In this document: positions 2,264 through 8,144 of the stretch, one piece after another
Numbering within the stretch: the first letter of the stretch is position 1
Layout: every line of letters starts with the position of its first letter
Assembly (NCBI GenBank): GCA_005778225.1
Contig: SXPC01000159.1
Coordinates: 1-44,325 of the forward strand
Direction: 5' to 3'
Length of the DNA: 44,325 nt
DNA from: Planctomyces sp.
Lineage (GTDB): Bacteria; Planctomycetota; Planctomycetia; Planctomycetales; Planctomycetaceae
The notes under the pieces: generated by a model
The model's input: the letters and a program-made list of their open reading frames with translations, nothing else
What the model was told of the DNA's origin: nothing
Database searches by the model: none
Position numbers and translations under genes: made by a program

Positions 2264-2305
2264 GAACTGTTGTTTCGCGGCGTGTCATTGGTCATATTGG
2301 GGGTC

Positions 2306-2854
2306 ATGCCGAACTATAAGCGGGTGCGTGAAGGGCGAACATTTTTCTTTACGGTGGTTACGTATCGTCGTCGCCCCATCCTGACGACTCCGCTGGGGCG
2401 TCGTTGTCTGCGGCGGGCGATTGAAATTGTTCGTCGTCGCCTGCCGTTTGACATGATCGCTATCGTACTACTGCCGGATCATCTGCATACGGTGTGGGAA
2501 CTGCCGGTTGGCGACGCGGATTACTCGACACGCTGGAGACTCATTAAGTTTCACTTCACAAAACATTGGCTGGCTGCGAAACCGCAAACGGACGCTCTGA
2601 CGGGAAGCCGGGAGAAACGACGAGAACAAGCGATCTGGCAACGTCGATTCTTTGAACATACCTGCCGTGACGAAATCGATCTGAAACGTTGTGTCGACTA
2701 CATTCACGTCAATCCACTCAAGCATCAACTGGTGGAACGAGTGCGAGATTGGCCGTGGTCGTCATTTCATCGTTTTGCCAAAGAGGGGGAGTATCCCGTG
2801 GAATGGGGGAATGCGAATGAGTGGTATGGGGATGAGTTTCGGGACTTTGAATGA
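2306..2854 (+). CDS. REP-associated tyrosine transposase (RAYT), IS200/Y1_Tnp-like
   Basis: [26 protein letters not shown]...[15 protein letters not shown]...[30 protein letters not shown] of HUH motif and catalytic Y in YIHxNPxKH. Start moved to the ATG at 2306. Confidence 0.93.
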
Positions 2855-7167: not shown

Positions 7168-7335
7168 ATGAATATTCTGCACTCGTTCTTTGACTTTCTG
7201 GTCTATTACACAAATTTCTACGTCGCCTTTCTGGGACGCTTGTGGCGAGACATTACGCCCTCGCAGTATGGCATTCTGCTGATCATGATTGCGCTCGGCG
7301 GGTATCTGATGATGCGCGGTGCAGCGAGGAAGTAA
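7168..7335 (+). CDS. small membrane protein (~55 aa)
   Basis: MNILHSFFDFLVYYTNFYVAFLGRLWRDITPSQYGILLIMIALGGYLMMRGAARK; hydrophobic helix. Confidence 0.45.
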   Translation: MNILHSFFDFLVYYTNFYVAFLGRLWRDITPSQYGILLIMIALGGYLMMRGAARK

Positions 7336-7490
7336 CGAAGCGTCGGGTGTGAGGGAAAGCAAAGATTCTGGGCGGATGTGGTCAAGTCTTCGGCAGCTTT
7401 GAAAAGTCAAAAAAAGAACGTCGCGAAAATGCAAAAAAAGAACGCAGCCGGGCAGGTTTGACAACCGATGATATTCCGGTCGAAGAGGTC

Positions 7491-7518
7491 TTGCCGTAAC
7501 TTCGCGGTTCGCTAAGAT
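7491..7518 (+). promoter_or_regulatory. sigma70-like promoter candidate for the downstream ncRNA
   Basis: TTGCCG (7491-7496), 16 nt, TAAGAT (7513-7518). Confidence 0.4.
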
Positions 7519-7524
7519 TCGTCG

Positions 7525-7709
7525 ACGAGATCAAGCCTCTTTTCTTTGATTCCGCCGGAGGTGCCAAACCCATACCATGGGCCGTCAACACCAAAGGGTG
7601 AGCCTTGTGCTACCCGTCGACCGCCCTTCTTAAAGCGACTCCACCGGTCGCAATCATCGAGAGGTTTGATCTTAGCCCTTGAAGAACTTCGGTTCTTCAG
7701 GGGTTTTTT
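7525..7709 (+). ncRNA. putative structured non-coding RNA, unclassified
   Basis: Closing stem GATCAAGCCTC (7529-7539) / GAGGTTTGATC (7661-7671); internal hairpins CCCAT-ACC-ATGGG (7569-7581) and GGGTgAGC-cttgt-GCTACCC (7596-7615); terminator at its 3' end; promoter-like boxes upstream. Confidence 0.5.
7676..7709 (+). terminator. rho-independent terminator with UUCG tetraloop
   Basis: CCCTTGAAGAAC-TTCG-GTTCTTCAGGGG-TTTTTT. Confidence 0.9.
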
Positions 7710-7730
7710 GTTGCGCGCTGTGGAAAGAAG

Positions 7731-7976
7731 AGACTGGAACGCAGAGCACGCGGAGGGGAGCAGAGGTCGCAGAGAAGAGAAGGCCAGAGTTAACGCAAAG
7801 TCGCCAGGACGCGAAGGAAGACTTTTCAATAGGAAACCATTTGTGTTTCGAAATCGATCTTTGGCTGATCGACTTTCCTGGCTTTTCCTCGTTGCGTCTT
7901 CGCGGCTTGGCGTTGAATCTGGGCTGTTCTTCTCTGCTGCACTCTTCTCGACTCTGTTATATCTGCGTTCCAGTCT
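7731..7976. repeat. inverted-repeat intergenic element, family 5, copy 1
   Basis: AGACTGGAACGCAGAG ... ATCTGCGTTCCAGTCT termini, same termini as 13756-13906. Confidence 0.75.
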
Positions 7977-8144
7977 ATTTCTCCCGGCGAATCACTTTCA
8001 AAAGCCTGCGGTGGTTTTGCGTCAATTTGTTCGTAAGTTCGCCAGCTTAAATGTTACCGATTGCATCAACGAAGCAAGCTGCGTTATAAAGTCTTCTCTC
8101 AATTGGTTTACCGCTGAGTCGTTGGTTTTTGGGATCGATTTCTC

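What the first reader, a model, noticed from the sequence alone, without database searches (positions are those of the whole stretch)
7491..7709. Unannotated structured RNA gene with promoter, closed multi-hairpin fold and UUCG terminator
TTGCCG-16-TAAGAT precedes a ~150-nt region closed by an 11-bp stem (GATCAAGCCTC/GAGGTTTGATC, one wobble). A second interior stem (TGATT..CCGG/CCGG..AATCA) encloses two hairpins. A 12-bp UUCG terminator with T6 follows. No ORF explains it (the overlapping 200-aa frame runs through the terminator and a repeat). I do not recognise SRP, tmRNA, RNase P or a common riboswitch. It could be a 6S-like or lineage-specific sRNA, or an interrupted leader of cstA.
Basis: partly seen in the sequence, partly recalled or inferred. 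Interest (0 to 1): 0.65.

Follow-up and report, generated by a model that had tools for sequence, protein, structure and literature searches.

The report
New structured RNA gene in Planctomycetia
The window holds a real, previously uncatalogued RNA gene: a single-copy, stand-alone, folded RNA of about 185 bases that recurs across two of the main lineages of planctomycete bacteria, whose job is still unknown but which looks more like a protein-binding or regulatory RNA than a gene leader.

Summary
At 7527-7709 there is a stand-alone structured RNA gene: a 147-nt core (7527-7673) closed by an 11-13 bp stem, then an intrinsic terminator (7674-7709). Rfam 15 has no match, in the window or in 18 relatives.

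Covariance models built here find it in 215 of 398 genomes of the class (102 of 186 genera), one copy each. They find none outside the class, and none in several families within it. Compensatory changes support the fold: 38 of 43 pairs change on both sides, and every pair that beats a phylogeny-aware null lies in the structure. A terminator follows in most members. No neighbour gene is conserved.

The host has separate 6S and SRP RNAs, and 40 genomes searched have no Hfq. So this is not 6S, SRP, a cstA leader or a classical Hfq sRNA. A sense-strand motif, TGCCGAT, upstream of many copies suggests dedicated regulation; it is absent at SRP and flagellin promoters.

Best reading: a new Planctomycetia RNA family acting in trans, probably as the core of an RNP or a regulatory RNA. 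Existence is near certain. Mechanism is inferred and no transcript was seen.

The parts
7462..7473 (+). CAACCGATGATA: probable degenerate copy of the family's upstream element TGCCGAT(R/W)A; an A-rich patch (7431-7445) lies about 20-25 nt upstream of it, as in relatives
   Evidence: for the motif in the family; for this copy. This copy lacks the TG, so its assignment is inferred.
7491..7518 (+). Putative promoter TTGCCG-16-TAAGAT; expected start near 7525
   Evidence: Sequence. Weak sigma-70 match, 8 of 12 by my count, not called by the scan. No transcript data.
7527..7673 (+). Core of the RNA as matched by models R1 and R2 (142 and 116 bits)
7529..7541 (+). P1, 5' strand of the closing stem (pairs with 7659-7671)
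   Evidence: two-sided changes in all relatives' P1 pairs
7659..7671 (+). P1, 3' strand
   Evidence: As above
7547..7551 (+). P1b, 5' strand UGAUU (AUU/AAU conserved)
7652..7656 (+). P1b, 3' strand AAUCA
7557..7561 (+). GGAGG, probable pseudoknot strand (pairs with CCACC 7641-7645 in the P6 loop)
   Evidence: 91% of cells paired, 74% or less when slid; G-C to A-U change in 29 of 169 members, but E 0.75 against a phylogeny-aware null
7579..7626 (+). Long apical hairpin: P3 (7579-7582/7623-7626), P4 (7584-7589/7616-7621), P5 (7596-7603/7609-7615). P2 (GCG/CGC in the family) is not paired in this copy
   Evidence: P2-P4 hold the pairs that beat the phylogeny-aware null; coordinates
7635..7651 (+). 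P6 hairpin GCGAC-UCCACCG-GUCGC, the most conserved part of the RNA
   Evidence: 97% of cells paired; A-U to G-C in 3 sequences
7674..7709 (+). Intrinsic terminator with UUCG loop and T6
   Evidence: a terminator at this place in 55 of 63 and 84 of 105 relatives, controls 1 of 63 and 7 of 103

Best explanation
This is the window's copy of a new family of stand-alone noncoding RNA of the class Planctomycetia (Pirellulales and the window's own family). SHOWN by comparison: the gene exists, is single-copy, has a defined 3' end, keeps a folded core of about 147 nt under purifying and compensatory selection, and does not travel with any gene. PROBABLE: the transcript runs from about 7525 to 7709, and the P6 loop (UCCACC) pairs with GGAGG to close a pseudoknot. 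INFERRED: it acts in trans as the RNA core of a ribonucleoprotein, or as a protein-binding regulatory RNA of the 6S/SRP style of action. Its conserved core (UUCCG-N-CGGAGG, the UCU bulge and the AGCGAC..GUCGCA hairpin) would be the binding platform. Its expression would be set by a dedicated regulator or sigma factor reading TGCCGAT. No binding partner is known.
For: Homologues: DNA search 5 of 59 genomes including its own; models R1 and R2 find 204 and 215 of 398 class genomes, one copy each with R2. A 23-24-base pattern run over 84,980 species finds 40 contigs, all titled as planctomycete-type organisms except one titled only 'bacterium', and all full-length members at 99 bits or more. Covariation: 85.7% of cells paired against about 37-44% when slid, 38 of 43 pairs with two-sided changes; 6 of 6 pairs significant under a tree-based null lie in the structure, in two data sets. 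Terminators. No shared neighbour in more than 4 of 41 loci. Not coding. Hfq absent from 40 of 40 genomes. TGCCGAT upstream in 31 of 63 loci against 8 of 241 gene starts; held-out loci 44 of 103 against 4 of 102 downstream and 1 of 103 antisense; 0 of 27 SRP genes.
Against: No transcript, partner or phenotype was seen. Covariation that beats phylogeny is concentrated in P2-P4; P6 is nearly invariant and the pseudoknot is below significance, so the tertiary model is not proven. The window copy has lost P2 pairing, and its minimum-energy fold prefers an alternative long-range pairing. The family is absent from whole families of the class and from some closed genomes of the window's own family, so it is not universally essential. 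Trans action through an RNP rather than base pairing rests on the lack of Hfq and on conserved structure, which is indirect.
Confidence: 0.6

Rival explanations
1. Hfq-independent antisense regulator: the RNA represses or activates mRNAs by pairing through exposed conserved stretches (CCAACC, UUCU, or the anti-Shine-Dalgarno-like UCCACC loop), and structure only presents the seed.
For: Stand-alone gene with a terminator and possibly regulated expression. GGAGG and UCCACC resemble Shine-Dalgarno and anti-Shine-Dalgarno sequences.
Against: No Hfq in 40 genomes. GGAGG and the P6 loop appear to pair with each other. Conservation is highest in paired or structured segments.
Confidence: 0.25
2. A 6S-type RNA polymerase regulator that diverged beyond recognition, standing in for 6S where 6S has been reported missing.
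For: Similar topology at low resolution (closing stem, unpaired flank, apical hairpin) and similar length. It is present in a genome matching Thermogutta terrifontis R1 by length, for which Infernal found no 6S, and absence was reported for Pirellula staleyi and Rhodopirellula baltica (PMC5673643).
Against: No RF00013 match in the window or 18 relatives. The window's genome has a separate 6S over cut-off. The P6 hairpin and probable pseudoknot fill what would be the open bubble.
Confidence: 0.07
3. Cis-acting leader or riboswitch-terminator of the downstream gene (cstA here).
For: It sits upstream of cstA on the same strand in the window and ends in a terminator.
Against: Downstream genes are unrelated between loci and on the same strand in only 21 of 41. 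Several hundred bases and an inverted-repeat element separate it from cstA. No alternative anti-terminator was seen.
Confidence: 0.03
4. Repeat-derived or chance structure without function.
For: A repeat-like inverted element lies just downstream.
Against: Single copy, compensatory changes across 102 genera, conserved terminator.
Confidence: 0.01

Closest known systems
6S RNA (RF00013)
   Same: Single-copy stand-alone RNA of about 180 nt with a closing stem and an apical hairpin; trans-acting.
   Different: No CM match; separate 6S in the same genome; P6 hairpin and probable pseudoknot where 6S has an open bubble.
Bacterial small SRP RNA (RF00169)
   Same: Stand-alone structured RNA gene with its own promoter.
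   Different: Separate SRP RNA in the window's genome (36.3 bits, below cut-off but with the conserved GGUCAGG..AGCAG core) and in 34 of 35 carriers. SRP genes use a TTTGAC/TACAAT-type promoter, not TGCCGAT.
Rhodopirellula-1 motif (Weinberg et al. 2010, PMC2864571)
   Same: A candidate motif whose listed taxa include Planctomycetes; no Rfam accession given.
   Different: Listed there as ambiguous as an RNA, probably cis-regulatory, and in Proteobacteria too. The present family shows no cis linkage, and the genome-wide pattern hits were planctomycete. Its alignment was not available, so identity is not formally excluded.
raiA/ModT-type conserved structured ncRNAs of unknown mechanism
   Same: Broadly conserved, highly structured, stand-alone RNAs found by comparative genomics.
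   Different: No sequence or CM relation (Rfam negative); a different, Planctomycetia-only distribution. Resemblance of kind only, from memory.

Membership tests
6S RNA | Match to the RF00013 covariance model | tested here: not met
   No match at E up to 10 in the window stretch, nor at E up to 1 in 18 relatives
6S RNA | Is the genome's only 6S candidate | tested here: not met
   A separate 6S at G000:C23:9085-9267, 49.1 bits against a cut-off of 46.4
6S RNA | Binds RNA polymerase and templates product RNA | not testable with these tools
   Needs biochemistry
Bacterial small SRP RNA | RF00169 match and GGUCAGG..AGCAG core | tested here: not met
   Absent here; found at G000:C14:7879-7974 and in 34 of 35 carriers
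RNase P RNA | RF00010 match | tested here: not met
   No Rfam match at this locus. The assembly gave no RNase P RNA elsewhere either; it is 87% complete
tmRNA | ARAGORN tmRNA call | tested here: not met
   None in the window or in eight carrier loci
Riboswitch / cis leader | Constant position upstream of related genes on the same strand | tested here: not met
   No shared neighbours; 21 of 41 on the same strand
Hfq-dependent sRNA | Host encodes Hfq | tested here: not met
   0 of 40 genomes; the control search found Hfq in E. coli, B. subtilis and others
Any Rfam 15 family | Match at gathering score | tested here: not met
   No gathering-score match in the window; permissive scans of the window stretch and of 18 relatives gave only one weak hit, NsiR1 at 17.7 bits, which covers just the terminator
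Rhodopirellula-1 motif | Same consensus as the 2010 alignment | not testable with these tools
   The alignment is in a supplement that is not held; the main-text annotation differs

The most novel reading that the evidence does not exclude
The RNA is the core of a previously unknown ribonucleoprotein or global regulator specific to Planctomycetia, controlled through TGCCGAT. It may switch between a P6/pseudoknot form and a long-range CGNCGG/CCGUCG form, in bacteria that lack detectable Hfq.
Probability: 0.25. Interest if true: 0.85.

Novelty: categorically new. Interest (0 to 1): 0.64.

Why it matters
Few noncoding RNAs are catalogued outside Proteobacteria and Terrabacteria: a 2022 review counts 8 annotated sRNAs for the whole PVC group (PMC9029176). 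This one is conserved over about 100 genera with a strong compensatory record, in bacteria without detectable Hfq and with unusual cell biology. It occurs in cultured species (Blastopirellula marina DSM 3645; a genome matching Thermogutta terrifontis R1; probably Planctopirus limnophila), so a direct test is possible. 'Categorically new' here refers to the RNA family; whether its mechanism is new is unknown.

Tried and rejected
6S, SRP, RNase P and tmRNA identity (see membership tests). Cis-leader of cstA. Protein-coding explanation. Sigma-28/FliA promoter: TGCCGATRWA resembles the sigma-28 -10 box GCCGATAA, but flagellin genes of the same genomes do not carry it at promoter positions, some carriers lack flagellin, and flagellin presence does not track the RNA, so this was dropped. 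TGCCGAT as a general stable-RNA promoter: 0 of 27 SRP genes. Weak CM hits in families lacking the RNA (27 bits or less; L141-L144) look like chance matches, probably in coding sequence. Long-range CGNCGG/CCGUCG as the main fold: the middle pair is U-U in 26 of 63, and insertions at the loop edge would bulge it; kept only as an alternative conformer. Phage and plasmid carriage: none found. Literature: no Planctomycetes sRNA study found that covers it.

Full report
WHAT IS THERE. The window is contig 140 of a 5.1-Mb, 87%-complete assembly. The region folds far better than shuffled sequence (z -4.4 with the terminator; z -3.9 for the core alone). Rfam 15 gives nothing at gathering scores in the window. 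At E up to 10 the only hit is a weak one on the terminator hairpin.

HOMOLOGUES. Plain DNA search found four relatives. A covariance model from five sequences (R1) found 204 of 398 genomes of the class. A second model from 63 sequences (R2) found 215 of 398, in 102 of 186 genera, one match per genome. In a phylum-wide draw all 36 hits fell in the class. A laxer re-search of 39 genomes without a hit gave nothing credible, so absence from some families, and from some closed genomes of the window's own family, looks real at this sensitivity. A 23-24-base pattern scanned over 84,980 bacterial and archaeal species returned 40 contigs. All are titled as planctomycetes except one titled only 'bacterium', and all 40 are full-length members. 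They include Blastopirellula marina DSM 3645. Genome G045 equals the published length of Thermogutta terrifontis R1 (4,810,751 bp), and both species are Pirellulales, class Planctomycetia. From memory, the 5,423,075-bp contig of G109 is Planctopirus limnophila.

STRUCTURE. On a MAFFT alignment not fitted to structure, 85.7% of cells pair, against 37-44% when the partners are slid. 38 of 43 pairs change on both sides, and no shuffle of 500 reaches any of the observed values. I also used a tree-based null (substitutions re-dealt over the tree, column by column). With 63 sequences, six pairs reach E<0.05 and ten reach E<1, all inside the structure. With 169 sequences, six reach E<0.05, again all inside. 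The significant pairs lie in P2, P3 and P4. P1 pairs range from E 0.13 upwards, the best being 0.13-0.16. P6 is almost invariant but shows A-U to G-C changes. The pseudoknot GGAGG/CCACC is paired in 91% of cells (74% or less when slid), and its best pair reaches E 0.75: probable, not proven. The same strands can form a long-range helix CGNCGG/CCGUCG that excludes P6. The window copy and L037 prefer it in single-sequence folding, while four other members fold with P6. Insertions at the 3' edge of the P6 loop fit the pseudoknot better than a continuous helix. A switch between the two forms is possible but untested.

GENE ANATOMY. A terminator follows P1 in 55 of 63 loci (1 of 63 in control windows) and in 84 of 105 further loci (7 of 103 controls). 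No neighbour gene is shared by more than 4 of 41 loci, and the next gene is on the same strand in 21 of 41. Core lengths of 141-154 nt vary out of frame, and no frame is open throughout.

UPSTREAM ELEMENT. TGCCGAT occurs in the sense strand within 140 nt upstream in 31 of 63 loci, against 8 of 241 other gene starts (P 9e-18). On held-out loci it is 44 of 103, against 4 of 102 downstream and 1 of 103 antisense. Its distance to P1 varies widely (about 15-135 nt), so a regulator site or a second promoter is as likely as the core promoter. SRP RNA genes in the same genomes lack it (0 of 27) and show TTTGAC/TACAAT-type promoters instead. The sigma-28 idea was tested on flagellin genes and dropped. 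In the window the best candidate, CAACCGATGATA, is a degenerate copy. The site found by the motif model in 50 of 63 loci comes from a fit to the same loci and is not counted as evidence.

WHAT IT IS NOT. The same genome carries its own 6S (49.1 bits, over cut-off) and SRP RNA (below cut-off at 36.3 bits but with the conserved core). 34 of 35 carriers have a separate SRP RNA. Hfq was not found in 40 genomes while the controls rang. A paper reports no 6S in Thermogutta terrifontis, and cites its absence from Pirellula staleyi and Rhodopirellula baltica (PMC5673643). Since the window's genome has both RNAs, replacement of 6S is unlikely but not excluded for Pirellulales.

HOW IT PROBABLY WORKS. 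Shown by comparison: a single-copy, stand-alone, terminated, selected RNA fold. Inferred: action in trans through a protein partner or as a regulatory RNA, with expression set by whatever reads TGCCGAT. The conserved core suggests a binding platform. Antisense action without Hfq remains the main rival. No transcript has been seen, and this is the first thing to check.

NOVELTY. Nothing in Rfam 15 or in the papers searched describes it. One caution is the 2010 candidate 'Rhodopirellula-1' (PMC2864571). It was listed as ambiguous, probably cis-regulatory, and in Proteobacteria as well as Planctomycetes. Its features differ, but its alignment could not be read.

Noticed in passing
window 7728-7979: Imperfect nested inverted repeat (44-nt arms 80% complementary, 38-nt arms 74% complementary) between the RNA gene and cstA, rich in GCAGAG/CGCAGAG; looks like a planctomycete intergenic repeat element.
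   Followed up: no
window 7168-7335: Possible small membrane protein of 55 aa just upstream of the RNA gene, no Pfam match.
   Followed up: no
RNA upstream regions of L001-L287, about 15-135 nt before P1: TGCCGAT element with an A/T-rich patch about 25-30 nt upstream and CAA near -19; some copies form an inverted repeat (e.g. AAATCGGC / GCCGATTT in L068). The regulator is unknown.
   Followed up: partly
L178-L207: Planctomycetia SRP RNA genes share a strong TTTGAC(G)-N-TACAAT-like promoter, useful as a sigma-70 reference for the class.
   Followed up: no
whole genomes: Hfq (PF17209) not found in any of 40 Planctomycetia genomes.
   Followed up: no
window 2270-2854: IS200-like (Y1) transposase family protein.
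   Followed up: no
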